A stretch of 61,244 bases of DNA. Source: Bacteroidales bacterium (lineage in GTDB: Bacteria; Bacteroidota; Bacteroidia; Bacteroidales; UBA932). A program made the translations under genes and the position numbers. The notes under the pieces are model-generated. The model had not been told where the DNA came from. It saw nothing but the letters and a program-made list of their open reading frames with translations, and did not search any database. The stretch lies in contig JAGBNC010000014.1 of NCBI GenBank assembly GCA_017634595.1, positions 1 through 61,244 of the forward strand, given 5' to 3'. Shown here piece after piece: positions 1,605 through 43,294 of this stretch. The stretch's first letter is position 1. The number at the start of each line of letters is the position of its first letter.

Positions 1605-2225
1605 TCAAGAGATTTCTACTTTGTAGCCTTTGGAGATATCAAGGAGTTTGCCTATAGCTTTCTGGTAATGGCGCTGGCGCAGATGGAGCATGATGGAGGC
1701 CGAGCCTTCGGAATAACTGAAAGAGTCAATTTCAAAACCGGCCTTGCGTATGTTGCCCAGCACTTGCGTCAGATCCTCTTCGGAGATTGGCGAGATGCCC
1801 AGATGGATAGCTTTGTCGCCGTATCGCCGAGTGATGAAGTGCATGGTCTCCAGGCAGATAATGGTCATCAGCGATGCAGCGATGGCTACTGCGTACATGC
1901 CGGCTCCGCATGCAAGGCCGATGGCTGCTGCGACCCAAAGTCCGGCGGCGGTCGTGACTCCGCGTACTACGTTCTTCTGGAAAATAATGACGCCGGCGCC
2001 GATGAAACCGATGCCTGACACGACTTGTGCCGCCACGCGTGCTGCATCGAAGCGTCCGGTAAAAGCGTACTGGGAAATAATCATGAACAAGGCGCTTCCC
2101 AGAGCGACGATGAAATGCGTGCGGAGCCCTGCTTCTTTTGCCCTGAATTCACGTTCCAGGCCTATGAGGCCGCCGAGCAGCCCAGCGACGAATATACGTA
2201 ATATGAAATTCCACTCGATGGTCAT
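1605..2225 (-). CDS. MgtC/SapB family membrane protein
   Basis: A 206-residue inner-membrane protein of the MgtC/SapB family. The N-terminal half holds hydrophobic segments and the family signature LLGGLIGLEREFRAKEAGLRT, then GIGFIGAGVI and GLWVAAAIGLACGAG. The C-terminal 70 residues form a soluble ACT-like domain. In enterobacteria MgtC is linked to low-magnesium growth, ATP control and phosphate signalling. It lies 12 bases after the SLC13 gene on the same strand, so it is probably the last gene of the phosphate-like cluster that starts at 9756. That context fits the MgtC-phosphate link but does not prove it. The family call is secure; substrate or partner is unknown. It converges on the gene ending at 1582, with only 22 bases between and no clear terminator. 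Confidence 0.88.
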   Translation of the reverse strand: MTIEWNFILRIFVAGLLGGLIGLEREFRAKEAGLRTHFIVALGSALFMIISQYAFTGRFDAARVAAQVVSGIGFIGAGVIIFQKNVVRGVTTAAGLWVAAAIGLACGAGMYAVAIAASLMTIICLETMHFITRRYGDKAIHLGISPISEEDLTQVLGNIRKAGFEIDSFSYSEGSASIMLHLRQRHYQKAIGKLLDISKGYKVEIS

Positions 2226-2237
2226 GGCGCAAATATA

Positions 2238-3848
2238 CTAAAATAATCCAGGAGTGATGTTCAGCCACTTAAGGACAGTCTCCCCGAATATCAAGATGAG
2301 TATCCATGAGAAGGTCATCATAGTGATACCGAACTTGAATGCATCGGTCTGGCTGTACATGTTGGTATTATATAGAAGCGCGGCCGGCTTGCTGTTGAAC
2401 GGCAGCACATAGCAGTGCTCGATGAGCATGGACACGGGCAGCGCAAGACTCATGGGCATGAAGCCGAAGCGGGATTCTACCCCCAGGGCTATGGGTACGA
2501 ACACCATGGTCCTGATGGTCTTGCTCTGAAACACCAGGCCCGAGTACATCATGAGGAAGGTCAGGATGACATAGAGCACCCAGAACGGAGTGCCGGCGCC
2601 GATTCCCATGGAGTCGAATGCCGCATTGACCATGGTGTTGGGGAGGTCGGTGGCGTTGAGGCCGCTTCCGAGGACGTAGGCGCCGGCGGAGAACAGCATG
2701 AGGTGCCAGGGGATATCGACATCGTTCCATTTCACCACACCTATTCCAGGGAGCAGGGCGAGAACGGCGCCGATGAGAGCCACGATTGTCTCGTCAATAT
2801 TGTGGAAGGTGCCTTTGGTGACCCAAAGTATGAGCACGACCATGAAGATGCTGACGGCCCTCCATTCCTGGGCGCTCATTTTGCCCATAGCGTCAAGTTC
2901 GACCTTAAGACGCTCTATCCCACCTTCGATCTGTGGCTTCTGCTCCTCTTTCTTCATGGGGAAGAAAACGTACATCCCAAGCAGCAGGCCTACGACGAGG
3001 ATTATGACGCTCATGGGCCCGACGGCTACGAGCCAGTCGGCGTATCCGAAGTCGCAGCTGCCGATGAATCCGGCAATGAGCGAGATGGCAAGCAGGTGCG
3101 CACCGCTGCCGGTGTAGAATGCGTTGGCCCCTATGTTGACCTGGAATAGATTCTGTATTACGAGGTTGCGTCCAAAGTTGTTGCGATTGCCGTTGGATGC
3201 CCCATAGATGGCGCAGATGACCATAAATATGGGGAGCATGATGGTGGCTTTGACTGTGGTGGCGGAGATGAACGCCGACAGCACCAGGTTGATTACCAAG
3301 AAGCTCCAGAGTACGCCCTTGGCGCTCTTGCCGAATTTGATAACGAATGCGAGTGCGAGGCGCTTTGCAAATTGTGTCTTGACCAGCATGGACGCCAGTA
3401 CGAAGCTCAGAATGTTGAGCCACATGACGGGGTGACCGAGCTGCGCGAGGGCTTCTTTCTGAGTGGTGACTCCCAGAAGAACTGTGCCTAGAATGAGCAG
3501 CAGGGAAGTAAGGTAATTGGGAAGTGCCTCGGTCATCCATAGTATTAAGCTGGCTACGAAGATGGCCAGCATAGCGTAGTTGGCCCGAATGAATCCTTCG
3601 GGACCGAGTACGCCGAGGCGTTTCTGGGCAGTGGCGGCCAGGGTGCTTGTGTCCAGATTGTCAATGAAGCCGATATGGCAGAACCAGCAGATCCAGACGA
3701 AGGCGATGATGGCCAGCGGGCCTCCTAGGCGCGCCATCCATATCTCGAACTTCGATTTCTGCATCTTAGGCAGTTTCTCGATCTTGTAGTTGTTCATGTC
3801 CAGCGGGTCGAATGCCGCTGCAGTGCTGTTTACAGGTTCTTTTGCCAT
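2238..3848 (-). CDS. SLC13/DASS family sodium-anion symporter
   Basis: Predicted polytopic inner-membrane carrier of about 536 residues with the two-repeat DASS organisation. Visible landmarks are the hydrophobic helices, GANAFYTGSGAHLLAIS in the first repeat and LPFNSKPAALLYNT near the end. Known members move dicarboxylates, citrate, sulfate or phosphate with sodium; the yeast Pho87/90/91 phosphate carriers belong to this superfamily. I place the start at ATG 3848 (MAKEPVNST). The open frame runs back to 3905, but that extension would pass through a long hairpin and lacks family-like sequence. The gene follows the CYTH genes and precedes mgtC. The neighbourhood suggests phosphate or another phosphorylated anion, but the substrate is inferred from context only. 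Confidence 0.85.
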   Translation of the reverse strand: MAKEPVNSTAAAFDPLDMNNYKIEKLPKMQKSKFEIWMARLGGPLAIIAFVWICWFCHIGFIDNLDTSTLAATAQKRLGVLGPEGFIRANYAMLAIFVASLILWMTEALPNYLTSLLLILGTVLLGVTTQKEALAQLGHPVMWLNILSFVLASMLVKTQFAKRLALAFVIKFGKSAKGVLWSFLVINLVLSAFISATTVKATIMLPIFMVICAIYGASNGNRNNFGRNLVIQNLFQVNIGANAFYTGSGAHLLAISLIAGFIGSCDFGYADWLVAVGPMSVIILVVGLLLGMYVFFPMKKEEQKPQIEGGIERLKVELDAMGKMSAQEWRAVSIFMVVLILWVTKGTFHNIDETIVALIGAVLALLPGIGVVKWNDVDIPWHLMLFSAGAYVLGSGLNATDLPNTMVNAAFDSMGIGAGTPFWVLYVILTFLMMYSGLVFQSKTIRTMVFVPIALGVESRFGFMPMSLALPVSMLIEHCYVLPFNSKPAALLYNTNMYSQTDAFKFGITMMTFSWILILIFGETVLKWLNITPGLF

Positions 3849-3868
3849 ATCTCTAGAGTTTGAAATCA

Positions 3869-3940
3869 ATCGGGCTGTGGAGTCCCTGCGGGGGCCTTTC
3901 CCCATATATTATGGCCCCCGTAGGGACTCCACTGCCCGAT
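3869..3940. repeat. 27-bp imperfect inverted repeat between CYTH and SLC13 genes
   Basis: Arms 3869-3895 and 3914-3940 pair over 27 positions with two mismatches around an 18-base loop. The core is GGAGTCCCTGCGGGGGC against its complement. In the operon's direction (minus) it lies after the CYTH stop codon and ends about 20 bases before the SLC13 start. No T-run follows the stem, so it is not a classic terminator. Attenuation, mRNA processing and stabilisation, or a dispersed palindromic repeat are all possible. Confidence 0.7.
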
Positions 3941-3982: not shown

Positions 3983-4459
3983 CTATTTCCAATTCTTGTA
4001 AGGGTTCTTCATCAGCATAGAATTGAAGTACTTAGGGTCGCCGGTGACCTCTTCGCCAAGCCATGCGGGTTTGTCAAAGGGCTCGTTCTCGTCGGCAAGC
4101 TCGACTTCGGCCACGGTGAGGCCGTCGTTGTCGCCGTAGAACTCGTCAACTTCCCATGTATGCTTGCCGTCTGTGTTCTTTACAAGGTAGCGGGTCTTGT
4201 CAATAACTCCGGGCTCGGCTAGGTCGAGCAGGGCCTTTACATCTTCGACCGGGATTTCCTTCTCCCACTCGAAACGGGCGGCTCCTGATGCATTGCCTAT
4301 GCCCTTGACGGTGATGAAACCCTTGTCACCTTTGACGCGGATGCGAACAGTGCGCTCGGGGACGCTGCTGAGATAACCTTGGGTGATACGTGTTGCTTTG
4401 AAGGCCTCGGCTTTGAAATCGCCTTTGACCAAGAATTTTTTCTCTATTTCCTGTGCCAT
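3983..4459 (-). CDS. CYTH domain protein (triphosphate tunnel metalloenzyme)
   Basis: About 158 residues. The protein opens with MAQEIEKKFLV, containing the ExExK-type signature of CYTH proteins, followed by alternating charged strands (TVRIRVKGDKGFITVKG, FEWEKEIP, TRYLVK, WEVDEFYGDNDGLTVAEVEL) that line the tunnel and bind metal and triphosphate. Bacterial members of this short type hydrolyse inorganic tripolyphosphate or similar substrates. Start chosen at ATG 4459, right after the upstream stop at 4464; a longer frame back to 4489 would overlap the previous gene. It sits in the same transcript as a second CYTH-like protein, an OprP porin and DUF47, which suggests work on phosphate polymers or tripolyphosphate. 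The enzyme family is clear; the substrate is inferred. Confidence 0.88.
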   Translation of the reverse strand: MAQEIEKKFLVKGDFKAEAFKATRITQGYLSSVPERTVRIRVKGDKGFITVKGIGNASGAARFEWEKEIPVEDVKALLDLAEPGVIDKTRYLVKNTDGKHTWEVDEFYGDNDGLTVAEVELADENEPFDKPAWLGEEVTGDPKYFNSMLMKNPYKNWK

Positions 4460-4463
4460 GATA

Positions 4464-5102
4464 CTATTCGTTTGCAAGAGGTTTGTCAATCATGCCGATA
4501 ACGCGCTTGATAGCCTGGAGGTAGTTGATGTTCTCCACTCCTTCAAGTCCGCAGTCGGCAACAGTCTTCTTAATGTCTTCTATCTCAGTGGATTCTGAAT
4601 TGATAGTGACCACTTTGGCGCCGTTGATGAGCACGTTGCCCACCTCGCAGATGGTGTCGTTGACCATGTATCCGAAACGCTGCTTGTGTACACGTACAGC
4701 AGCCAGGTCGGGGTTGGCCTTGACCATAGCGATGAACTCCTCATAAGTGTATGTGTCTTTGTCGAGCTTGGGCATCTCTACCATGAAAGCAGGGAACACT
4801 TCTTTCTCAAGCACTTCGCGGCTGATGGGGAATTCTCCCTTCATCAGTGGATTCCACTGCTCGAAGCCGTCCACAGTCTGAACATAGGTCTTGATGTCCA
4901 TCTTACCGTTGCGGATTTTGGTGTTGTTGATGTCGTTCTTGGCCGAGATGATGTATATCTCGTCGCTGGTGCGCTCCCAGACCTTCTCGGGTACCGGAAC
5001 GGAAAGACGTGCCATGCGTTTGTGCGCTTCGCAGAAGTCCTGACCGAAGCTGCGGAATTCGAAGCGAGGCTTGCTCTGCTCGCCGATTTTAAGTTCTGCC
5101 AT
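4464..5102 (-). CDS. CYTH-like hypothetical protein
   Basis: A 212-residue soluble protein without signal peptide. I do not recognise a named family with certainty. The sequence looks like a divergent CYTH fold: a strand with basic residues (VRVHKQRFGYMVND), a strand with acidic and small residues (ICEVGNVLING) and TINSESTEIEDI, which resembles the EVE/IES strands of triphosphate tunnel enzymes, then a C-terminal helical tail (NYLQAIKRVIGMI). The N-terminal third (ARLSVPVPEKVWERTSDEIYIISAKND) may be an extra strand pair. It is four bases upstream of a clear CYTH gene, so the two may form a heteromeric pair. Alternative: an unrelated cytosolic protein of the same operon. Confidence 0.5.
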   Translation of the reverse strand: MAELKIGEQSKPRFEFRSFGQDFCEAHKRMARLSVPVPEKVWERTSDEIYIISAKNDINNTKIRNGKMDIKTYVQTVDGFEQWNPLMKGEFPISREVLEKEVFPAFMVEMPKLDKDTYTYEEFIAMVKANPDLAAVRVHKQRFGYMVNDTICEVGNVLINGAKVVTINSESTEIEDIKKTVADCGLEGVENINYLQAIKRVIGMIDKPLANE

Positions 5103-5120: not shown

Positions 5121-6077
5121 TTATTTTGCTGTGCCTTTGGAATTTGAACTGCCTATTGTGCCTGCGGAGAATACTATCCATTCGCCGTCGCCGTCGGTCT
5201 TACGTCCTATTGTCTCTGTGTCTTCGAGAGTCTTGAAACCCTCAACAGATGCGGAATTGTCAAGTTCGTCGATCACTTTGCCGTCTTTGTCGAGCATAGT
5301 GAGTTTGAAGCCCTTGGTGCCGCTCAGACCGAATGAAGGACCTTCGTTGATGTCGGGATTCTTTGCAGTGAAGACGAGGAAGCCCTTGGACGGTATTTTA
5401 CCCTTGCCTTCGGGAACGGCCCAGTCGCCTGAGTCATCTTTCTTGAACACATATCCGGCTATGTCTATTTCCTTTGACGTGCCGTTGTATATCTCGAATT
5501 TCTTTTCGCCGCAGGATACTTCATTCAGCGCCAGTTTGCCTTCCGGCTGTGGAGCAGCGCCGTTGGATGCGCCGATGGTGGGGGCATCGAAAATGACCCA
5601 CTCACTGCCGCCGTCGGTTTTGCGTCCCCAGGATTTACCGTCCTCTATGGCCACTATGCCGCCCTCGCGTTCGGAAGTATTATCGACCTTGTCTATCTCC
5701 TTTCCGTCCTTGTCCTTGAGTATAATGATGAAACCTTTGGTGCCGCTCAAGCCGAAGGTGGGATCTGTTGTGCCGTCGGACTTGCCGGTGAACACCGCGA
5801 ATCCCTTGGCCGCTATCTTGCCGCGGGAAGCGGGAATCTCCCATTCGCTTCCGTCCTTTGACATTATCCATCCGGTCATGTCAATTTCTGTGTCTCCGGC
5901 ATTGTAGAGCTCTATCTTCTTGTTGCCGCAGTCAAATTCATTGAAAACCACTTGTGCGGTGACAGTGGGGGTCGGGCCCGGCTCCGGTTCAGGATTGGGG
6001 TTTACATAGGGTTCGTCCTTTACGCAGCCTGCCAGTGCAAGTGCAAGGACCGGTATTGCAAAAAGTAACTTTTTCAT
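5121..6077 (-). CDS. Lipoprotein with two lamin-tail domains
   Basis: A 318-residue exported lipoprotein. The signal peptide MKKLLFAIPVLALALAGC ends in a lipobox (LAGC), followed by a proline-rich linker (NPNPEPEPGPTPT). Two tandem copies of about 130 residues follow, each with the lamin-tail (LTD) pattern: VFNEFDCGNKKIELYN and LNEVSCGEKKFEIYN at the start, KGF(A/L)VFT in the middle, FGLSGTKGF then IGRKTDG near the end. LTD modules are immunoglobulin-like and bind or scaffold at surfaces, often beside nucleases or phosphatases. The gene lies 12 bases after the OprP-like porin gene and is probably co-transcribed with it. A surface partner for the porin, capturing phosphate-bearing ligands, is a reasonable inference only. 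Confidence 0.85.
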   Translation of the reverse strand: MKKLLFAIPVLALALAGCVKDEPYVNPNPEPEPGPTPTVTAQVVFNEFDCGNKKIELYNAGDTEIDMTGWIMSKDGSEWEIPASRGKIAAKGFAVFTGKSDGTTDPTFGLSGTKGFIIILKDKDGKEIDKVDNTSEREGGIVAIEDGKSWGRKTDGGSEWVIFDAPTIGASNGAAPQPEGKLALNEVSCGEKKFEIYNGTSKEIDIAGYVFKKDDSGDWAVPEGKGKIPSKGFLVFTAKNPDINEGPSFGLSGTKGFKLTMLDKDGKVIDELDNSASVEGFKTLEDTETIGRKTDGDGEWIVFSAGTIGSSNSKGTAK

Positions 6078-6089
6078 AATCAGTAAAAA

Positions 6090-7490
6090 TTAGAAATCAA
6101 TTTCGAAACGGAGTGCAATCATGCTGTAGTCCACACCGGCCTTGCCTGCGTCGGCAACAACCTTTGCATAGTCCTTAGTGGGCTTGCCGGCGGCGTCATA
6201 GCCGACGAACAGCTTGTTCTTGCCGTTGGCATAGCGGTCATTGTTGTTGTACTGGTAGTTGATCTGCATGCGTACGTTGTTGGTTACCCACCAGTTGAGA
6301 CCTACGGTGTAGGCTTCGGCAGAACCTCCGTAAACGTTCTTTGCTGGAGCGTTCAGATCACAGAATTCGTAGCGGGCGCAGAGCTCGAGGTCGCCCCACT
6401 TCTGTCCGCGTATGGCGCGGGTGTACTTGGCTCCCTTGGAGTCGTAGCGCTGCTTGCCACCGAAGAGCAGGTAACCTGCCTGTACATACCAGCCGCCGAA
6501 GTTGAGCGCAGTGATGCTTGACGGATCGGTAGCATCCTTCAGAATGACGTTGTCACCGATGTACGCAGCCTCATATCTGAGACCTTTCCAGTGCCCGGCC
6601 AGCTCGACGGTCCAAAGGTTGTTGTGGTCGTAGCCCTTTAGGTTATTGGTGTCCAGATATTTCTTGCGGTTGATGCTGGTGGAGTTGCGGGCGCTGGCCC
6701 TGTAGGTACCCCATTCGCCGGTGGCCATGCTGCCCTTGGTGGTGCGGTATGAGTATGCTGCACCGATATGCAGACTTGCGTCCTCAAGCTTGCAGAGGGG
6801 TCTGAACACTAATTTCGCGGTTGCTGAGTAGCCTGTGTTCTTCAGGAAGCTGATGCCGCGGCCGAAGTCTTTGTTGTTGTCCTGGACGTTGTCGTGCTCT
6901 TCCATACCTGCACCTTCCTGAGCGAAGATACCGGCAGATGCCCAGATCCAAGGGTTGTCATACTTCGCATTGAAGCCGAGGTGGCGTGAAGGGGCCAGTG
7001 CCGAGCAGACCATAGGACGCTCGATGAACTGCAGGTAACGGGACGAGGTGTTGCGCTGCAGGGAGAAGTTCTCCTTGAAGTTACCGACCTGGAGGTCCAG
7101 GTTGGGGATGCCGGTATAGCGGACAATGGCGTCCTTGAGCTCAACCAGACCGTCTGCGAGGTCCATATCAAACTCACCATACCAGTTCTTGTCCACCTGA
7201 GCTTTGATTGCGAAACGGGCACGGCGGATGCTTACTCCATTGCCAATGGGGTCGGCATACTCCGGAGCTCCGAAGAAACCTGCGGCGTCAAACTGGGCGC
7301 GGTTGTCGAACCAGAGTTTGTAGCCCGAGGTGGGGGATTCTATGACAAGGAAGCCGTCCTGAGCTTCCGCGTCGAGAACGTCGGATTGTACGGCCACCCC
7401 GTACTGGTTGTACTTGACGGTCGCCTGCTGTGCCTGAGCTGCGTAGAGAGAGAGCAGTAACACGGCGAGAGTAAATAGAATTTTACGCAT
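6090..7490 (-). CDS. OprO/OprP-type porin
   Basis: A 466-residue outer-membrane protein with signal peptide MRKILFTLAVLLLSLYAAQAQ. The body is a beta-barrel with alternating aromatic strands (YKLWFDNRAQFDAAGFFG, SIRRARFAIKAQVDKNWYGEFDMDLADG, LQVGNFKENFSLQR), the pattern of the phosphate-selective porin O/P family, and ends in the terminal aromatic residue (IALRFEIDF) used for barrel assembly. Family members form trimeric pores selective for phosphate or polyphosphate, though many Bacteroidetes members have other ligands. It lies 19 bases downstream of the PiT/HTH fusion gene, with which it is probably co-transcribed. Phosphate selectivity is supported by the neighbouring DUF47, PiT-like and CYTH genes rather than by residues I can align. 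Confidence 0.85.
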   Translation of the reverse strand: MRKILFTLAVLLLSLYAAQAQQATVKYNQYGVAVQSDVLDAEAQDGFLVIESPTSGYKLWFDNRAQFDAAGFFGAPEYADPIGNGVSIRRARFAIKAQVDKNWYGEFDMDLADGLVELKDAIVRYTGIPNLDLQVGNFKENFSLQRNTSSRYLQFIERPMVCSALAPSRHLGFNAKYDNPWIWASAGIFAQEGAGMEEHDNVQDNNKDFGRGISFLKNTGYSATAKLVFRPLCKLEDASLHIGAAYSYRTTKGSMATGEWGTYRASARNSTSINRKKYLDTNNLKGYDHNNLWTVELAGHWKGLRYEAAYIGDNVILKDATDPSSITALNFGGWYVQAGYLLFGGKQRYDSKGAKYTRAIRGQKWGDLELCARYEFCDLNAPAKNVYGGSAEAYTVGLNWWVTNNVRMQINYQYNNNDRYANGKNKLFVGYDAAGKPTKDYAKVVADAGKAGVDYSMIALRFEIDF

Positions 7491-7509: not shown

Positions 7510-9090
7510 TTAAATGGATTTTATGAATTGAACCAAATTGTCGCTTCGTTTCAGACCGAGCTTCGCCCGCAGGCGGTACCGGTTGATCTCGGCGCTTTTG
7601 GGTGTTATATTCATGAGTGAGGCAATGTATTTGCTTGAGAAGCCCTGGCGCAGCAGGTTTGCCAGCTTGCGCTCGTTCTCGGTCAGGTTGGGATATGCCT
7701 CCGAAAGCCTCATGTTGAAGTCTTTGTGAAGCACTTCAGTGCGTGCGTAGAAATCGTTCATCTCTCTTGAGAAGTACATTCTTTCACGCATCGTGGCAAG
7801 CAGCCTGTCCAGTCCTGCATTCTTGTCCGGTCCGTCGGGGAGGGCGCGTATCGACTTCAGATCTTCGTAGAACTTTTCCATGAAGCGCTTCTGGTCGCTT
7901 ACGCCTACTGCAAAGTCAACGAGCTCCTTACGCTTGATCTCCAGTTTGCCCAGCAGGTCCTTTTCTGTCATTTCCGATTTGACTTCAAGGGCGGAAAGTG
8001 ACTTCCTGGCATTGTAGAGCTGCTGTTCGCGGTTGCTGATAATCTGCTTGCGGAGGCTGTTGCGGGATTGCCACTGGAGGTAGAGCACGACGGCTGCCAC
8101 GAGACTGGCTATGCCAAGGACAATGAGGGTGTTGACTATGTCTCCGTCTATGATGCGGCACAGGCTGTAGCACACCATGGCTCCCAGCAGGGGAGAGATA
8201 AGCGAGGCGAAGATGCATTTTACTATGCTCTCGCCGTCGATGAGGGCGCGCCGTCGCACCAGGCTTATGCCGGTGAGGGCGGCGACGAACAGAAGACCGG
8301 CAGGAAGGGGAGCTGCGCTGAAGCCGAGCACAATGCTCATGGCCAGCATTGTGGAAAGGGTGGATTCGGAGTTTATGTCAAGGTCGGTGTCGGCAATATT
8401 GTCGCGTACCACTCCTGCCGGTCTGATGACCAGTAAACTTGCTATGACAGCTAAACCAAGCGTGATGCCTGCCGCCATCAGGCCATAGCCATATTCTGCA
8501 ACAGGGATGCTGTTGAATACAAGGGCATTGTTGAAGGAATACGCGGCAGCAAGAAGCAGTGACGCTATGCCGGACAGGCGGAGCGTGAAAGACTCCTGCT
8601 TGATAAGGTTGGTGTTCAGATGGCCGGCAATGGAAGCATATAACTTATATATTCCGGCAGCAAGAGCTCCGCAGAGCAGCGGTGCCACAATCCAAGTGAT
8701 AAGATATGCCGAGGAAACGTCCCATCCGGGGCCTGTGTCGTATGCGCGTCCAAGGCCGATAAGTGCTCCTACAAAAGCCAGCTGCACAGCAGGAAAACGG
8801 CTTATCCGTCCGGCTAATGCTGCGCTTGCCAGAGTGGCTATGCCGACCGGGAGCAAGAGCTGGGATTTTGGAAGGGCAAGGGTGTCGGCAATGGCGAATC
8901 TGCTTGTGGGCGCCTTGAATGAGCAGTATAGCAGAATGGCACAGAATATGAGCGGGCAGAGGATCTTGATGTACAGTTTCTCACCGGACCCGGACGCTAG
9001 AATGCTCCCGGACACGACTGGAATGTCTCTCATGGAGAGAAACAATACCGACAGTAAGACTGTCAAGACAACGTACACGAAAGACCACAT
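7510..9090 (-). CDS. PiT phosphate-transporter-like membrane protein fused to LuxR-type HTH
   Basis: A 526-residue fusion. Residues 1-340 are a chain of hydrophobic segments resembling the two PHO4/PiT repeats: AFVGALIGLGRAYDTGPGW with TWIVAPLLCGALAAG, and later LTGISLVRRRALIDGES with FASLISPLLGAM. The site matching the GANDxxNA transport signature reads AYSFNNALVFNSI, so its key Gly/Asp residues look lost. Residues 345-420 are a charged coiled coil, and 466-526 are a GerE/LuxR helix-turn-helix (LTENERKLANLL, SSKYIASLMNITPKSAEINR, LRAKLGLKRSDNL). I infer a membrane-bound regulator that senses phosphate, or the state of a transporter, and acts directly on DNA. It starts three bases after DUF47, the usual partner of PiT carriers. 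The HTH is certain; the PiT kinship is likely but needs a profile search. Confidence 0.75.
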   Translation of the reverse strand: MWSFVYVVLTVLLSVLFLSMRDIPVVSGSILASGSGEKLYIKILCPLIFCAILLYCSFKAPTSRFAIADTLALPKSQLLLPVGIATLASAALAGRISRFPAVQLAFVGALIGLGRAYDTGPGWDVSSAYLITWIVAPLLCGALAAGIYKLYASIAGHLNTNLIKQESFTLRLSGIASLLLAAAYSFNNALVFNSIPVAEYGYGLMAAGITLGLAVIASLLVIRPAGVVRDNIADTDLDINSESTLSTMLAMSIVLGFSAAPLPAGLLFVAALTGISLVRRRALIDGESIVKCIFASLISPLLGAMVCYSLCRIIDGDIVNTLIVLGIASLVAAVVLYLQWQSRNSLRKQIISNREQQLYNARKSLSALEVKSEMTEKDLLGKLEIKRKELVDFAVGVSDQKRFMEKFYEDLKSIRALPDGPDKNAGLDRLLATMRERMYFSREMNDFYARTEVLHKDFNMRLSEAYPNLTENERKLANLLRQGFSSKYIASLMNITPKSAEINRYRLRAKLGLKRSDNLVQFIKSI

Positions 9091-9093
9091 ATA

Positions 9094-9756
9094 CTACAAC
9101 ACCCGCTTGATTGCCATCACTGATAATTGCTCCGCCACCTTTACGGCGGCTTTAGCCAGATCTTCAATGTGCAGAGCAAAGTACCTCAAGTGGAATTTTT
9201 CGCTCAATTTAAGACCATCCATATCATGGAAAACCGTTCGTTTAATGGACTGAGACAGCTTGACGGCCTCTTTCTCATAGAAATATACGCGGTTTGTGGT
9301 CTCGGCTACATCTTTTGGGGCGGAGAAATATGCCTTGGCCCCGGGAATTGATGTCTCCACTGCGAGAGAAGCAAGTTCGGCAAGTTTGGTGAACTCCTTT
9401 TTGAGCTCTGCAGGAATCTTCGGGGATTCAATTTCAAACTGGATGAGGTCGGCGCTTATGATGGATATGATGTGTTCGAAGCGCTCAAGAAGCCGCATTA
9501 TGTCTCCTCTGGAGCGGATCAGGTTGCCTCGAGTGTAGAGAGTGTTTTCAATTTCGCGGAACAAGGCACCCGCTTCCAGTTCCAGAGATGCCATGCTGCT
9601 GAGGTTGTCGGCGAAGCCGGATTCATCATTATAAAGGTAGTTCTTTACTCCGTCCCTGAATACCAAGACAGCATTGTCAACGATTCCGAGCAGCTTGTTT
9701 ATGCTCTCTATAAGTTTGTCGGTGTTCTTGTTAGAAAAAATACTCAGCAAGCCCAT
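9094..9756 (-). CDS. DUF47 / PhoU-like phosphate transport regulator
   Basis: A 220-residue all-helical cytoplasmic protein of the DUF47 (PhoU-like) family. Landmarks are the opening MGLLSIFSNKNTDKLIESIN, acidic-aromatic helices (LFREIENTLYTRGNLIRSRGDIMRLLERFEHI) that coordinate metal clusters in PhoU folds, and the second bundle (VYFYEKEAVKLSQSIKRTVF...LRYFALHIEDLAKAAVKVAEQL). DUF47 genes typically sit next to PiT phosphate transporters and modulate them. Here the partner is a PiT-like protein carrying a DNA-binding domain, so DUF47 may pass phosphate status to a regulator. It is the first gene of the minus-strand run, with a consensus-like promoter 29-59 bases upstream and TGTAGAG repeats beyond. 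Confidence 0.88.
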   Translation of the reverse strand: MGLLSIFSNKNTDKLIESINKLLGIVDNAVLVFRDGVKNYLYNDESGFADNLSSMASLELEAGALFREIENTLYTRGNLIRSRGDIMRLLERFEHIISIISADLIQFEIESPKIPAELKKEFTKLAELASLAVETSIPGAKAYFSAPKDVAETTNRVYFYEKEAVKLSQSIKRTVFHDMDGLKLSEKFHLRYFALHIEDLAKAAVKVAEQLSVMAIKRVL

Positions 9757-9818: not shown

Positions 9819-9918
9819 ATGTAGAGTTCGGGCTTTTTGGTTGTGTAGAGAGCTAAAATATTGATAATTAATTATATTACTCGTGCTTGTAGATTTATGT
9901 TATAGAGTTATTGTAGAG
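9819..9918. promoter_or_regulatory. TGTAGAG direct-repeat cluster, candidate operator
   Basis: On the plus strand TGTAGAG occurs at 9820, 9844 and 9912, with TGTAGAT at 9888 and the variant TATAGAG at 9901. Two pairs are 24 bases apart and the last two are 11 apart, a helical-phase spacing like that of Pho boxes. The 9820 copy is four bases upstream of the -33 element of the minus-strand promoter, the usual position for an activator. The cluster lies between the divergent DUF47 and CDF genes and could serve either or both. Confidence 0.45.
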
Positions 9919-9990: not shown

Positions 9991-10905
9991 ATGTCACACG
10001 AACATCATCATCACCACCATCATCATGGAAATATAGAAACGGGCGGTAATCTCAAAGGTGTTTACCTATTATCTATTGCTTTGAACCTCGGCTTTGTGCT
10101 CGTGGAAGCCGGCGTGGGCCTTTGGAAAGGATCGCTCGGACTCCTGTCCGATGCGGGTCACAATCTCAGCGATGTGTTTTCGCTGCTGCTTGCGCTGGTA
10201 GCATTCCGTTTGTCCGTCACTAAAAGCACACCTAAGTTTACTTACGGATATCGTAAGGGCTCAGTATTGATCTCGTTGTTGAACGCTGTTATTCTTCTTG
10301 TTGCCGTCGGTGCTATAATAGTGGAGAGCGTTCACAAGTTTATCAATCCTTCCGAGATAGATGGAGGCGCTGTTGCCTGGACTGCTGCGGTCGGCATTTT
10401 GGTAAACGGCTTTACGGCCTTCCTCCTTATGAGGCACCAGAAGAACGATATAAATACCCGTGGTGCCTTCCTGCACATGGCTGCTGATACTCTTGTGTCG
10501 ATAGGCGTTGTGGTATCTGGAATTGTGATATCTCTTACCGGCTGGTCGTTCATCGATCCTCTTATCGGAATTGTCATAGCCGTGGCTATATTGATCAGCA
10601 CCTGGGAGTTGCTTTCCGAGAGCCTTAAGATGAGCATGGATGCAGTCCCTGAAGGAGTTGATACAGAAGAAATCATTTCCGAAATGAAAGAGGTCCAGGG
10701 TGTATCGGACGTGCACCACGTGCATATCTGGCCCATCAGCACTACTCAGACCGCTCTTACCGCCCACGTTGTGCTGTCTCATGAAGCTGTGCCGGAAGAT
10801 CTTGTGGCTGCCCTCAAAAAGCATCTTGCAGAACATGGTATCGGGCATGCAACTATAGAGACGGAGCGCGAAGGCAGGGCTTGCACCGATCATGACTGTT
10901 GCTGA
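9991..10905 (+). CDS. Cation diffusion facilitator (zinc-type) exporter
   Basis: A 304-residue inner-membrane antiporter of the CDF family. The N terminus is a natural histidine run (HEHHHHHHHHG), as in many zinc-loading CDF proteins. Six transmembrane helices follow. Helix 2 has the metal-site motif LLSDAGHNLSD and helix 5 has HMAADTLVS, the HD-HD tetrahedral site typical of zinc exporters. The cytoplasmic C-terminal domain (residues 210-304) carries VSDVHHVHIWPIS and ends CTDHDCC, more metal ligands. It most likely exports zinc (perhaps cobalt or cadmium) in exchange for protons. It diverges from the DUF47 operon and is followed by mscS. The family is certain; metal preference is inferred from the HD-HD site. 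Confidence 0.93.
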   Translation: MSHEHHHHHHHHGNIETGGNLKGVYLLSIALNLGFVLVEAGVGLWKGSLGLLSDAGHNLSDVFSLLLALVAFRLSVTKSTPKFTYGYRKGSVLISLLNAVILLVAVGAIIVESVHKFINPSEIDGGAVAWTAAVGILVNGFTAFLLMRHQKNDINTRGAFLHMAADTLVSIGVVVSGIVISLTGWSFIDPLIGIVIAVAILISTWELLSESLKMSMDAVPEGVDTEEIISEMKEVQGVSDVHHVHIWPISTTQTALTAHVVLSHEAVPEDLVAALKKHLAEHGIGHATIETEREGRACTDHDCC

Positions 10906-10929
10906 TTAAGCATTATTTAGGTATCTTTG
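10899..10929 (+). promoter_or_regulatory. Promoter of the mscS gene inside the end of the CDF gene
   Basis: TTG at 10899-10901, 20 bases, then a perfect TATCTTTG at 10922-10929. The chosen ATG at 10935 begins only six bases later, so a transcript from here would have almost no leader. Confidence 0.55.
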
Positions 10930-10934
10930 CTGTC

Positions 10935-11858
10935 ATGATTCTTCAGACAACACCTTTCGTCCCATCCGAGGATCTTACAAGCAAAGTTGACTCAGTAAAG
11001 ATTGCTGCAAGCGATTTTGCCGAGGCTCTGGCAACGGATCCTGCTTCTGCCATGCATCAGCTGGGAGTGGAGGCAATACATTTCGGCCTCAAAGTGCTTC
11101 TTGCCGTCATTATTTATATAATCGGAGCATGGATCATTAAGCTGGTAAAGCGTGCATTGGGCAAAATGTTTACCAAACGAGGGACCGACAAGACTGTGGC
11201 TTCGTTTGTGTCGAGTTTCACTTCGGTGGCTCTTACCATTTTGCTTATCATACTAACCATAAGCACTTTAGGCGTAAATACCACATCTCTCGCTGCACTT
11301 CTGGCCGGCGGTGGCGTGGCATTGGGAATGGCACTGAGCGGCACGCTTCAGAACTTCTCTGGAGGCTTGTTGATTCTTGCTTTCAAACCATTTAAGGTGG
11401 GAGATTTCATTGAGGCTCAGGGCTATGCCGGAACCGTTACCGAGATGTCCATTGTGAGCACTAAGCTTACGCTGCCGGATAACCGTACCGTAATAATCCC
11501 TCACGGAACGCTCGCAAACGGGAATATTAACAACTATTCCAAGAATCAGCTGAGGCGCTTGGAGTGGAAGATCGGACTCGAATACGGTGTAGATGCTGAA
11601 GCTTGTGAGGCTAAGCTGCTTGAAATAGTAAAAGCAGAATCCAGAGTGCTGGATTCTGCTTTTAAAGGTGCGGCAGATCCTTTTGCTGCCGTGTCTCAGC
11701 TTAAGGACAGTTCCGTTGAGTTCGTGCTGAGGGCCTGGGTGAAGAATGCTGATTACTGGCCTGTGTATTTTGCAGTCAATGATGCAATCTACAAGCAGTT
11801 GCCTCAGTCAGGCTTTGGCTTCCCGTTCCCTCAGATGGATATTCACGTGAAGTCCTGA
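10935..11858 (+). CDS. Small-conductance mechanosensitive channel MscS family
   Basis: About 307 residues. An N-terminal periplasmic segment leads to hydrophobic helices (LKVLLAVIIYIIGAWII and VALTILLIILTISTL). Next comes the glycine/alanine-rich pore helix TM3 (LLAGGGVALGMALSGTLQNFSGGLL) and the beta domain signature KPFKVGDFIEAQG...TVTEMSIVSTKLTLPDN with VIIPHGTLANGNINNYS, all diagnostic of MscS. The channel opens under membrane tension and releases solutes during hypo-osmotic shock. I start at ATG 10935; the open frame extends to a TTG at 10899 inside the previous gene, but a consensus -7 element lies between. It may also be co-transcribed with the CDF gene. Confidence 0.93.
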   Translation: MILQTTPFVPSEDLTSKVDSVKIAASDFAEALATDPASAMHQLGVEAIHFGLKVLLAVIIYIIGAWIIKLVKRALGKMFTKRGTDKTVASFVSSFTSVALTILLIILTISTLGVNTTSLAALLAGGGVALGMALSGTLQNFSGGLLILAFKPFKVGDFIEAQGYAGTVTEMSIVSTKLTLPDNRTVIIPHGTLANGNINNYSKNQLRRLEWKIGLEYGVDAEACEAKLLEIVKAESRVLDSAFKGAADPFAAVSQLKDSSVEFVLRAWVKNADYWPVYFAVNDAIYKQLPQSGFGFPFPQMDIHVKS

Positions 11859-11859
11859 C

Positions 11860-12453
11860 TTATTTTTCGTAGCGGCTCTCTACGACATCCCAGTCAATGA
11901 TCTGCCAGAGCGCAGCCAGGTGATCAGGCCTGCGGTTCTGGTAGTCAAGGTAATACGCATGCTCCCATACGTCGAAGGTGAGCAGGGGATTCAGTCCGCG
12001 GCATACAGGGTTGCCGGCGTTTGACTCCTGGGTGATATGCAGCTTCCCTTCGGCATCGCTGGAAAGCCATACCCAGCCCGATCCGAACAGCCCGGCTCCC
12101 TTCTTCTGGAACTCGGCTTTGAACGACTCAAAACTGCCGAAGTCCCGCGCAATGGCTGCGGCCAGGGCTCCTTTGGGCTCGCTTTCTTTGCCGGCAGCTT
12201 TGAACTGGGTGAAATAAAGGGTGTGGTTGAGTACCTGTCCGGCGTTGTTGAATATGCCACCTTCTGATGTACGTACTATTTCTTCAAGGCTTTTACCCTC
12301 AAAACCGCTGCCCGGAAGGGCTGCGTTGAGATTGTTGATGTACGCTTGAAGGTGTTTTCCGTAATGGAAAGCAATTGTATCAGCACTTATGACGGGTGCG
12401 AGCGCATCCTGGGCGTAGGGCAGGTCTGCGGGGGTGAAATAACTGTTAGCCAT
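11860..12453 (-). CDS. sodB: Iron/manganese superoxide dismutase
   Basis: A 197-residue cytoplasmic Fe/Mn superoxide dismutase, close to the usual length. It converts superoxide to oxygen and hydrogen peroxide. Metal ligands are visible in the standard places: His in FHYGKHLQAYINNLN, His in QVLNHTLYF, and Asp and His in the signature DVWEHAYYLDYQN. GAGLFGSGWVWL is the conserved core strand. Single-gene unit, converging on mscS with a one-base gap. Divergent from rhamnulokinase; a TATATTTG -7 element lies at 12485-12478 on the minus strand. Metal type (Fe, Mn or cambialistic) cannot be told by eye. Confidence 0.95.
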   Translation of the reverse strand: MANSYFTPADLPYAQDALAPVISADTIAFHYGKHLQAYINNLNAALPGSGFEGKSLEEIVRTSEGGIFNNAGQVLNHTLYFTQFKAAGKESEPKGALAAAIARDFGSFESFKAEFQKKGAGLFGSGWVWLSSDAEGKLHITQESNAGNPVCRGLNPLLTFDVWEHAYYLDYQNRRPDHLAALWQIIDWDVVESRYEK

Positions 12454-40483: not shown

Positions 40484-43294
40484 ATGAAATATAGAACCAA
40501 AAGCCGGATAAGCCCATCTACCAATCGTACCCTTACTCCAGGGGCTCTTGAGATCTATTTATTGACCATCATTTTACTCGTTTCTTGTGACAGGAAGCCA
40601 GTCGCTTATACTCAGGAAGAAAGGCGGGCTGCTGAGTCTTTGGTCCGTTCGGCCGGCAGCATTGACTCCCTGGCTTCACTTCAAAGCTCGCTGGAGGGGA
40701 GTGGAGACTGCCTCGGGAGCATCGTTGCACTGCGTGAATGGGGGAAGGAACTTCGCAACGAAAGCCGCTTTGAGGAAGCGCTGAATGTTCATAGTGAAGG
40801 ACTTAGGCAGGCAGAGTCTGCCGGAGATACGCTTGAGTGGGTCCAGGCCCTGAACAACATCGGCACTGATTATCGCAGGATAGGGATGCTCGATGTTGCC
40901 CAAAACTACCACTACCGCGCCCGGATTTTGAGCGAAGAGTGTGCCGATACCTCCTATACGGCAAAGAAGAACCGGCTGATTTCCATCAATGGCCTGGGAA
41001 ATATTTACCTGACAATGAAGAACTATGATCGGGCCGACAGCGCTTTCCGTTATGCCCTGCAAGGCGAGAAGGAATTGAATAGTTCTCTTGGAATGGCGAT
41101 CAACTACGCCAACCTCGGGTCCATTTTCGAAGACCGAGGGCAGCTTGATTCGGCATGGGCGAGTTACCGTCTTGCTATGCACTACAATGAGGCGGCGGGA
41201 AGCAGGCTCGGCATGGCGTTGTGTCACATATACTTTGGCTCACTTTACGAAAAGGAGCGCCAGCTTGACAATGCAAGGGAAGAATATGAAGTAGCCTATC
41301 ACATGCTGGAGGAGTCCAAAGACGAATGGCATTTTCTGAATACGCTCGTGGCGTTGTCCGGCATATACATTATGACAGGAGACGGCACTAAGGCCATGGA
41401 GTATCTGGAGAAAGCCGGCAATATGGCTGAACAAATCAAGTCGGTGGAGCATCTTGTTGAAATCAATACGCTGTATTACAAGCATTTCAAGCAGCAACGG
41501 GATTATCGACGGGCACTACAATATCACGAACAGGCCATTGTCATGAAGGACAGTCTGTTGAACATGGAGATGATCAACCGCATCCAGAACACCAGCCTGA
41601 ACATCGAACGGGGGCGCCAGGAGAGGGAGATGAACTTGGCCAGGATGCGTTTGCAGCAGGAACGAATTGTACGTAACAGGGCTAACATCGTGGTGAGCTT
41701 TTTGCTGATCATTATCGCGTTGCTACTTTATATCCACTGGCTTTACACCCGAAGCAACAAGGCGTTGAAGCAGATATCCCAGGTGCGCGAGAATCTCTTT
41801 ACCAGTATCACCCACGAACTGCGCTCCCCGCTTACCCTGATACTCGGATTCAGCCATGATCTGCAGCAAACCGATTCTTCTGCAAATGTGAAGGAAAAGG
41901 CTCATGCTATTGAACGTCAGGGCAACGAATTGCTTTCGCTTATCAACCAGCTTCTTGATATCTCAAAAATCAAATCCGCCCTTATCACTCCCGACTGGCA
42001 AAACGGGAGTATCAAGACATACATAACTATGATTGTTGAGTCTTACCGAGACTTCGCAAGGGGCCGGAATATCGATCTCCAGTTCATTGCCAAAGAAGAC
42101 GTTGAGATGGATTTTGTCCCGGACTATGTGAACAAGGTTATGGGAAATCTGTTGTCCAATGCCTTCAAGTTTACTCCTGAGTACGGGAAAGTAAGCATTA
42201 GTATGTGGCGGGAAGGTGAAAAGCTGCGCATAGACGTGTCAGACACAGGGGAGGGCATGGATGAGGTGGCAGTCGCACATGCCTTCGAGCCTTTTTTCCA
42301 GGCCGAGAGCAAGCATAAACAGGATGGGACAGGAGTGGGGCTTGCGCTTGTCAAGCAAATTATAGATGTAGTGGAGGGGGAGGTATCTGTGGATAGTAAA
42401 TTAGGGCACGGTACTACCTTTCACTTGCAGCTTCCTATTCGTAACAATTGTAAACCCCTGGATGCAAATGTCGGGAAGCCAATTTTTCCCAAGCCCGAGA
42501 CCGTTCTAGACGACAGCGAGCCCGATGAGAACCAATGCCGGATACTCGTCATCGAAGACAATCGGGACATAGCGTCCTATATCGGCGCTCTGTTCGACAG
42601 CCGATACGCGGTGTCATATGCCACGAACGGACGAGATGGATTGGAGAAAGCCATGGATCTCGTTCCGGACCTTATCATCACCGATCTTATGATTCCCGGC
42701 ATGAGTGGATTGGATATCTGCCGGCAGATCCGGTCGAATGAGATTGTCAACCATATACCAATCATTGTCGTGACGGCCAGGGTTACGGAAGAAGAGAAAA
42801 TGCTGGGGCTCGAAGCCGGTGCGGACGTATATCTCACAAAGCCGTTCAATAGTGACGAACTGCGTACACTGGTTGATACCCAGCTTGAACGGCACCGCAA
42901 TCTGCGCAGGAAATACGGCGTGGATGTACCTGTCGGTAAAGAGGAGAGTAAATCACTTACCGACAACGGGCGACGCTTCCTGGCCAAGATTGTGGATCAA
43001 ATCTATCTGCTCATGGACAGGGGCAAGTTCAATGTGAATACGCTGGCGGGGAATCTTTGCATGAGTCCCCGTCAGTTCCATCGCAAGGTGTTGGCTCTGA
43101 GCGGGGAAACTCCTGCATCTTTTATCCTGAGAATCAAAATGAAGAGAGCCCGCCAGCTGCTTGAATCCAGACCTGGTATGACCATAGAGGAAATCGCTGA
43201 AAAGTGCGGTTTTGATTACCCCTCCAGTTTCTACCATTCCTTCAAGAAGATGTACGGCGTGACGCCGGCCAATTTCAGGAAAGGATCTTCTTGA
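40484..43294 (+). CDS. Hybrid two-component sensor/regulator with TPR sensor and AraC output
   Basis: A 936-residue one-protein signalling chain. The N terminus carries a hydrophobic segment with a possible lipobox (LLVSC). Residues 60-395 are tetratricopeptide repeats (ALNNIGTDYRRIGMLDVAQNYHYRARIL, AINYANLGSIFEDRGQLDSAWASYRLAM). One transmembrane helix lies near 405-425 (IVVSFLLIIIALLLYIHWLY). Next is a histidine kinase (FTSITHELRSPLTLILGF with the phosphorylated His; NLLSNAFKFTPEYG; DTGEGMDEV; GTGVGLALVKQ), then a receiver (ILVIEDNRDI, phospho-Asp in LIITDLMIPGMSGLD, LTKPF). A C-terminal AraC HTH follows (MSPRQFHRKVLALSGETP, IEEIAEKCGFDYPSSFYHSFKKMYGVTP). Most Bacteroides hybrids use beta-propellers as sensor; TPRs are a variant. 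Target genes are unknown; the SusC locus 4 kb upstream is one candidate. Confidence 0.93.
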   Translation: MKYRTKSRISPSTNRTLTPGALEIYLLTIILLVSCDRKPVAYTQEERRAAESLVRSAGSIDSLASLQSSLEGSGDCLGSIVALREWGKELRNESRFEEALNVHSEGLRQAESAGDTLEWVQALNNIGTDYRRIGMLDVAQNYHYRARILSEECADTSYTAKKNRLISINGLGNIYLTMKNYDRADSAFRYALQGEKELNSSLGMAINYANLGSIFEDRGQLDSAWASYRLAMHYNEAAGSRLGMALCHIYFGSLYEKERQLDNAREEYEVAYHMLEESKDEWHFLNTLVALSGIYIMTGDGTKAMEYLEKAGNMAEQIKSVEHLVEINTLYYKHFKQQRDYRRALQYHEQAIVMKDSLLNMEMINRIQNTSLNIERGRQEREMNLARMRLQQERIVRNRANIVVSFLLIIIALLLYIHWLYTRSNKALKQISQVRENLFTSITHELRSPLTLILGFSHDLQQTDSSANVKEKAHAIERQGNELLSLINQLLDISKIKSALITPDWQNGSIKTYITMIVESYRDFARGRNIDLQFIAKEDVEMDFVPDYVNKVMGNLLSNAFKFTPEYGKVSISMWREGEKLRIDVSDTGEGMDEVAVAHAFEPFFQAESKHKQDGTGVGLALVKQIIDVVEGEVSVDSKLGHGTTFHLQLPIRNNCKPLDANVGKPIFPKPETVLDDSEPDENQCRILVIEDNRDIASYIGALFDSRYAVSYATNGRDGLEKAMDLVPDLIITDLMIPGMSGLDICRQIRSNEIVNHIPIIVVTARVTEEEKMLGLEAGADVYLTKPFNSDELRTLVDTQLERHRNLRRKYGVDVPVGKEESKSLTDNGRRFLAKIVDQIYLLMDRGKFNVNTLAGNLCMSPRQFHRKVLALSGETPASFILRIKMKRARQLLESRPGMTIEEIAEKCGFDYPSSFYHSFKKMYGVTPANFRKGSS

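What the first reader, a model, noticed from the sequence alone, without database searches (positions are those of the whole stretch)
7510..9090. Membrane regulator built from a PiT-like phosphate transporter and a LuxR-type DNA-binding domain
One protein joins two PiT-like membrane repeats, a cytoplasmic coiled coil and a GerE/LuxR helix-turn-helix. The GAND-type transport signature appears degraded (AYSFNNALVFNSI). The gene follows DUF47, the normal PiT partner. Inference: a former transporter now works as a receptor (or transporter-receptor) that acts on genes directly, without a two-component relay. I do not know of a described regulator of this design.
Basis: partly seen in the sequence, partly recalled or inferred. 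Interest (0 to 1): 0.8.

Follow-up and report, generated by a model that had tools for sequence, protein, structure and literature searches.

The report
Phosphate-transporter-derived membrane gene switch
Many Bacteroidales carry a protein that joins a membrane part related to phosphate transporters to a DNA-binding-type domain, within a conserved gene cluster; it likely senses phosphate and would switch that cluster directly from the membrane, without the usual two-protein relay.

Summary

The gene sits in a conserved operon: DUF47, this regulator, porin O/P, lamin-tail lipoprotein, a protein with predicted triphosphate-tunnel fold, CYTH protein, DASS symporter, often MgtC. AACTCTACA precedes the operon in 62 of 62 counted regions (0.2 expected). 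Inference: an oxyanion-sensing, likely phosphate-sensing, one-component membrane regulator of its own operon. Phosphate versus sulfate, binding to the motif, loss of transport and direction of control are untested. My paper searches found no description. New variant of a known kind.

The parts
7510..9090 (-). PiT-coil-LuxR regulator, 526 aa
8134..9090 (-). PiT-like membrane domain, residues 1-319
7711..8139 (-). last membrane helix and coil, residues 318-460
   Evidence: helix 318-415 in the model, hydropathy segment 318-336
7513..7710 (-). LuxR/GerE helix-turn-helix, residues 461-526
9025..9027 (-). codon of D22, position of the first-signature Asp
   Evidence: Asp 39, Glu 27, gap 1 of 67 rows; aligned with canonical Asp
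8530..8532 (-). codon of N187, the Asn of the degraded second signature
   Evidence: 67 of 67 rows; aligned with GGND of the own PiT
9094..9756 (-). DUF47 / PhoU_div-like partner, first gene of the operon
9820..9828 (-). AACTCTACA, candidate operator nearest the start of the operon
9844..9850 (-). CTCTACA, further copy
9912..9918 (-). CTCTACA, further copy
6090..7490 (-). porin O/P
   Evidence: PF07396 E 4.5e-36
5121..6077 (-). lamin-tail-domain lipoprotein-like protein
   Evidence: PF00932 E 5.8e-23
4464..5102 (-). 212-aa protein with predicted triphosphate tunnel fold
3983..4489 (-). CYTH protein (start may be an ATG further in)
   Evidence: PF01928 E 3.8e-15
2238..3905 (-). DASS-family anion symporter
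   Evidence: TIGR00785 200.4 bits, cut-off 198.6
1605..2225 (-). MgtC
   Evidence: PF02308 E 4.7e-40

Best explanation
The gene at 7510-9090 encodes a PiT-derived membrane domain joined through a long coil to a LuxR-type helix-turn-helix, and it likely works as a one-component sensor that binds an oxyanion, most likely phosphate, and would directly switch its own operon from the membrane. Shown: the domain make-up, its relation to PiT, the conserved operon and the conserved upstream motif. Inferred: the remodelled PiT site (acid at residue 22, Asn 187) is occupied when phosphate is plentiful; the DUF47 partner reports on that state, as the PhoU-like PitR does for PitA; when the site empties, the coil lets paired HTH domains grip AACTCTACA elements beside the promoter and activate DUF47, the regulator itself, porin O/P, lipoprotein, two triphosphate-tunnel-type proteins, DASS symporter and MgtC. 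In other Bacteroidales the first transport signature is intact, so there the same protein may both transport and signal; in the window's clade it would be a receptor only, and this genome has a separate canonical DUF47-PiT pair.
Against: No ligand, transport or DNA-binding data. The order-wide relatives carry GANN and Q-for-H, shared with CysP-like sulfate permeases, and DASS members can carry sulfate. The motif is tied to this HTH only by co-conservation. PHO4 is below cut-off in the window protein. The genome-wide 9-mer count is not enriched over its reversed control (14 against 20). Unfused relatives sit in similar clusters, so the module can run without the LuxR part. Presence is patchy: near-full-length matches in 7 of 99 genomes of the window's family, own genome included. 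By regular expression 8 of 120 window-type proteins still hold a [GA]xND string in residues 131-260, so the erosion is not total everywhere.
Confidence: 0.5

Rival explanations
1. Same architecture and regulation, but the ligand is sulfate or another oxyanion, not phosphate. The second half-site is of the CysP type.
For: GANN in 36 of 36 and Gln for His in both PVS motifs in 36 of 36 order-wide rows; CysP-like proteins share PQSTSQ and GANN; L217 scores 94.2 bits to the CysP model; B. subtilis CysP has Gly and Asn at the two Asp positions (PMC5840216, passages); the operon has a DASS symporter.
Against: First-signature Asp kept in 35 of 36, Gly in CysP; 94.2 is far below the 400-bit CysP cut-off; CysP-like rows form a separate branch; DUF47, CYTH and a tunnel-fold protein in the operon.
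Confidence: 0.2
2. The DUF47 protein is the real sensor; the PiT part is mainly a membrane anchor and docking site for it.
For: DUF47 is adjacent in 77 of 80 loci, the other 3 ending too early; the membrane half is the least conserved part; one locus, L010, has an ORF running from DUF47 straight into coil and HTH.
Against: N187 and the acid at 22 are kept, and purifying selection acts on the membrane half; L010 holds a run of N in its DUF47 part, so assembly error is possible.
Confidence: 0.2
3. It is still a working transporter whose flux is read by the attached HTH (transporter and receptor in one).
For: First signature intact in 35 of 36 order-wide orthologues; unfused relatives sit in similar modules.
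Against: In the window clade both motifs are gone; residues equal to PiT2 H502 and D506, critical for phosphate transport (PMC3126765, passages), are replaced in 36 of 36 order-wide rows.
Confidence: 0.15
4. The HTH does not act on this operon; AACTCTACA is the site of another regulator or a promoter element.
For: Only co-conservation links motif and protein; no binding data; other membrane LuxR proteins share the same tail in related genomes.
Against: G000 has a single protein with this tail at E 0.001; the tandem motif was found only ahead of this operon in 13 of 13 cases.
Confidence: 0.15

Closest known systems
PiT / PHO4 inorganic phosphate transporters (6L85; human PiT2)
   Same: Fold over residues 1-319, two repeats, DUF47-like neighbour
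   Different: Extra helix, coil and LuxR HTH; GANN instead of GAND in the second signature of the order-wide family, both motifs eroded in the window clade
Ks-Amt5 ammonium sensor histidine kinase (PMC5764959; abstract and one section read)
   Same: A transporter domain recruited as sensor; that domain binds ammonium but does not efficiently translocate it
   Different: Amt fold and a histidine kinase output with a relay; here a DNA-binding-type output on a PiT-derived domain
Transmembrane transcription regulators (PMC10269533; passages read)
   Same: One-component, DNA-binding domain held at the membrane; enriched in Bacteroidota
   Different: The main text held has no occurrence of LuxR and one of transporter (in a reference title); supplements not read
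PitA-PitR phosphate signalling of S. aureus (PMC13170248; passages and one section read)
   Same: PiT transporter with a PhoU-like partner adjusting transcription of phosphate genes
   Different: There the output goes through the PhoPR two-component system; here an HTH is fused to the PiT-derived domain
CysP sulfate permease (PMC5840216; passages read)
   Same: PiT superfamily, Asn in the second signature
   Different: First-signature Asp replaced by Gly; no HTH; CysP-like rows form a separate branch
BT3442 family proteins (NCBIfam NF053779)
   Same: C-terminal part resembles the coil and HTH: 18.4 bits for the window protein, 24.6 for L217
   Different: Far below the 940-bit cut-off; different sensor half

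Membership tests
PiT / PHO4 transporter | Pfam PHO4 score over 33.7 bits | tested here: not met
   Window protein 21.5 bits; orthologue L217 210.4 bits. Hence called PiT-derived, not a PiT transporter
PiT / PHO4 transporter | PiT fold | tested here: met
PiT / PHO4 transporter | two GANDVANA-type signatures with Asp | tested here: not met
   67-row window clade keeps an acid at 22 and N187 only; order-wide rows have Asp in 35 of 36 (first) and 0 of 36 (second)
PiT / PHO4 transporter | phosphate transport | not testable with these tools
   needs an uptake assay
LuxR/GerE HTH | PF00196 over cut-off | tested here: met
   25.8 vs 23.5 bits; the distant orthologue L217 is below, 19.4
LuxR/GerE HTH | DNA binding | not testable with these tools
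   a conserved upstream motif only
Two-component response regulator | receiver domain | tested here: not met
   no receiver family among Pfam hits up to E 1
Transmembrane one-component transcription regulator | membrane segments and DNA-binding domain in one protein | tested here: met
   8 hydropathy segments plus GerE
CysP sulfate permease | NF053884 over 400 bits | tested here: not met
   L217 94.2 bits; no NF053884 row for the window protein up to E 1
DUF47 / PhoU_div (gene 9094-9756) | PF01865 over 24.4 bits | tested here: not met
   20.4 bits; syntenic orthologue 63.7 bits
Triphosphate tunnel (CYTH-type) fold, gene 4464-5102 | tunnel fold | tested here: met
Triphosphate tunnel (CYTH-type) fold, gene 4464-5102 | CYTH sequence profile | tested here: not met
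   no CYTH row up to E 1, no NCBIfam row

The most novel reading that the evidence does not exclude
Across an order of bacteria, phosphate homeostasis runs through a single membrane protein in which a PiT transporter reads phosphate and controls transcription itself, with a DUF47 partner and a private AACTCTACA operator, in place of the PhoBR-Pst-PhoU relay; in rumen lineages the transporter half has decayed into a pure receptor, so one can watch a transporter becoming a transcription factor.
Probability: 0.33. Interest if true: 0.86.

Novelty: new variant of a known kind. Interest (0 to 1): 0.73.

Why it matters
How Bacteroidota without a recognisable PhoBR system regulate phosphate is open: PMC13170248 (section read) finds neither PhoP nor PhoR in 228 of 926 genomes, Bacteroidota among them. 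This gives a concrete candidate with a partner, a predicted target operon and a predicted operator, all testable. It also offers a possible transporter-to-receptor series (unfused, fused with one signature intact, fused and eroded) and adds a protein family with a predicted triphosphate tunnel fold (the 212-aa gene) tied to the same module.

Tried and rejected

Tree (quick method, 127 rows): canonical PiT, CysP-like and window-clade rows are each one side of a branch (SH-aLRT 98, 100, 98); unfused relatives fall among the order-wide PiT-LuxR rows. The tool warned that long branches meet, so where the window clade joins is unsure; I rest orthology on synteny.

A first PiT set held wrongly cut ORFs because minus-strand loci were read on plus; redone. 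The redone PiT rows (27 of 31) were chosen by regular expressions on the very motifs counted, so motif conservation in that group is partly by construction; the other two groups were not chosen by motif. In one search, 5 of 67 upstream regions without ATG at the inferred start were dropped before the count; in the printout 4 of these 5 also show CTCTACA and one (L102) does not. One of the 20 regions (L208) is short because the contig ends.

Paper searches aimed at this architecture: (listings seen); none of the listed titles describes it; one search returned nothing. Supplements were not read, and subscription papers are mostly not held. The PhoB cut-off is passed by only 2 of 14 control genomes, so absence of PhoB is suggestive only.

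Full report

How far it reaches. One scan of genome contigs found 96 relatives and kept 80 loci, all in records titled Bacteroidales or Bacteroidia, most named after rumen or gut samples. In 99 genomes of the window's own family, 44 match the protein, but only 7 (own genome included) over nearly its full length; the rest match mainly through the coil and HTH tail, which other membrane regulators share. A membrane-part profile found matches in 46 of 393 order genomes. I read the ORFs of 28 loci outside the window's family (L175-L202): by the printed ends, 20 end in the LuxR HTH, one is cut by the contig end (L182), one starts inside (L189), one carries a stop (L185), and five (L181, L183, L184, L190, L199) lack the LuxR end. 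A protein search with one of them scored 7,999 candidates and listed the best 120, all of 575-585 residues; source names include 'inorganic phosphate transporter' and 'phosphate/sulfate permease/DNA-binding CsgD family transcriptional regulator', so the two halves are already visible in automatic annotation. In 395 phylum genomes at E 1e-40, 12 gave PiT-like matches in frames without a LuxR end, G000 matched through its coil and HTH half, and one more matched through the tail alone. At most three candidates per genome were scored there, so fusions could be missed.

The operon. In the 80 loci every gene found lies on one strand and in the window's order (80 of 80, lipoprotein not counted). DUF47 was found in 77, porin O/P in 79, the 212-aa protein in 75, CYTH in 68, DASS in 65; all absences of these five are where the locus ends. 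MgtC was found in 51 and is absent with room in 13. A lamin-tail protein was found in 54. In 20 larger loci, 19 from across the order and one from the window's family, DUF47 and the regulator are in 20, porin and CYTH in 19, lamin-tail, the 212-aa protein and DASS in 18; one locus (L215) is cut and one (L223) lacks the rest. This genome also holds a canonical DUF47-PiT pair on another contig, with GMND and GGND intact.

Signature history. Aligned columns: order-wide PiT-LuxR rows, n=36, keep Asp in the first signature (35), but have Leu for His and Asn for Asp in the second (36 and 36) and Gln for His in both PVS motifs (36, 36). The window clade, n=67, has lost the motifs; an acid at position 22 (39 Asp, 27 Glu, 1 gap) and N187 (67) remain. 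By regular expression, 119 of the 120 best order-wide proteins have G[AST]ND in the first 60 residues, and 0 of 120 window-type proteins do; 8 of the latter still show [GA]xND further on. The canonical group (n=27) was chosen by these motifs and serves only as reference. In human PiT2, D28, D506, H502, S113 and S593 are critical for phosphate transport (PMC3126765, passages). B. subtilis CysP, a sulfate permease, has Gly and Asn at the two Asp positions (PMC5840216, passages). The PiT-LuxR family thus looks phosphate-like in its first half and CysP-like in its second. I infer altered or lost transport and leave phosphate against sulfate open.

The candidate operator. AACTCTACA occurs upstream of DUF47 in 62 of 62 counted regions (5 of 67 dropped beforehand) against a shuffle mean of 0.2; the last CTCTACA copy starts 49-89 bp before the start codon. 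The tandem AACTCTACANNAACTCTA occurs at 13 sites in 13 of 30 genomes carrying the gene, with one hit of the reversed control; all 13 lie ahead of a DUF47 homologue. In this genome 13 of 14 single copies fall inside ORFs of 80 aa or more (some may not be genes) and the remaining one is this promoter; the total is no higher than that of the reversed pattern, 20. In the 20 larger loci CTCTACA occurs in 10 (0.22 expected) and [CA][AT]CTACA in 16 (2.3 expected), and a count of all 6-mers ranks CTACAA and CTCTAC first by excess. Binding by this HTH is inferred.

Mechanism and limits. I commit to a phosphate-sensing one-component regulator at about 0.5. Shown: domain make-up, ancestry, operon, motif. 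Inferred: ligand, role of DUF47, DNA site, activation on phosphate shortage, loss of transport. The nearest precedent for a transporter made sensor is Ks-Amt5, which binds but does not efficiently translocate ammonium and signals through a fused kinase (PMC5764959, abstract and one section). My paper searches listed no paper that by title describes a PiT-LuxR protein.

Noticed in passing
window 4464-5102 (-): 212-aa protein without a family hit over cut-off but with a predicted triphosphate tunnel fold, 90-99% identical in the 75 relatives where found: likely an unrecognised tunnel-fold family.
   Followed up: partly
L010 919-1902 (+): One ORF runs from DUF47 straight into the coil and LuxR HTH with no PiT part; a run of N lies inside the DUF47 part, so assembly error is possible.
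   Followed up: partly
L257 7573-10331, L261 7363-10120: Unfused PiT of the same subfamily between a DUF47-like gene and a 205-aa gene plus a CYTH-like gene: a reduced module without LuxR, porin or symporter beside it (by eye).
   Followed up: partly
L267-L278: In other families of the phylum PiT of the GANN type has either no tail (L267-L269) or a different tail of roughly 130 residues (L270-L278), and most show a DUF47-like ORF beside it, judged by eye.
   Followed up: no
L212 10934-12212: Two adjacent genes of the 212-aa tunnel-fold type; the first is 44% identical to the window protein.
   Followed up: no
window 9991-12453: CDF, MscS and SodB genes next to the operon are kept only in close relatives (8, 10 and 9 of 80 loci).
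   Followed up: no
window 42536-42913: Receiver domain inside a 951-aa frame, probably a hybrid two-component regulator.
   Followed up: no
L225-L245: CysP-like proteins of about 345 aa with PQSTSQ and a G[ATS]NN signature form a separate PiT branch in Bacteroidales; substrate untested.
   Followed up: partly
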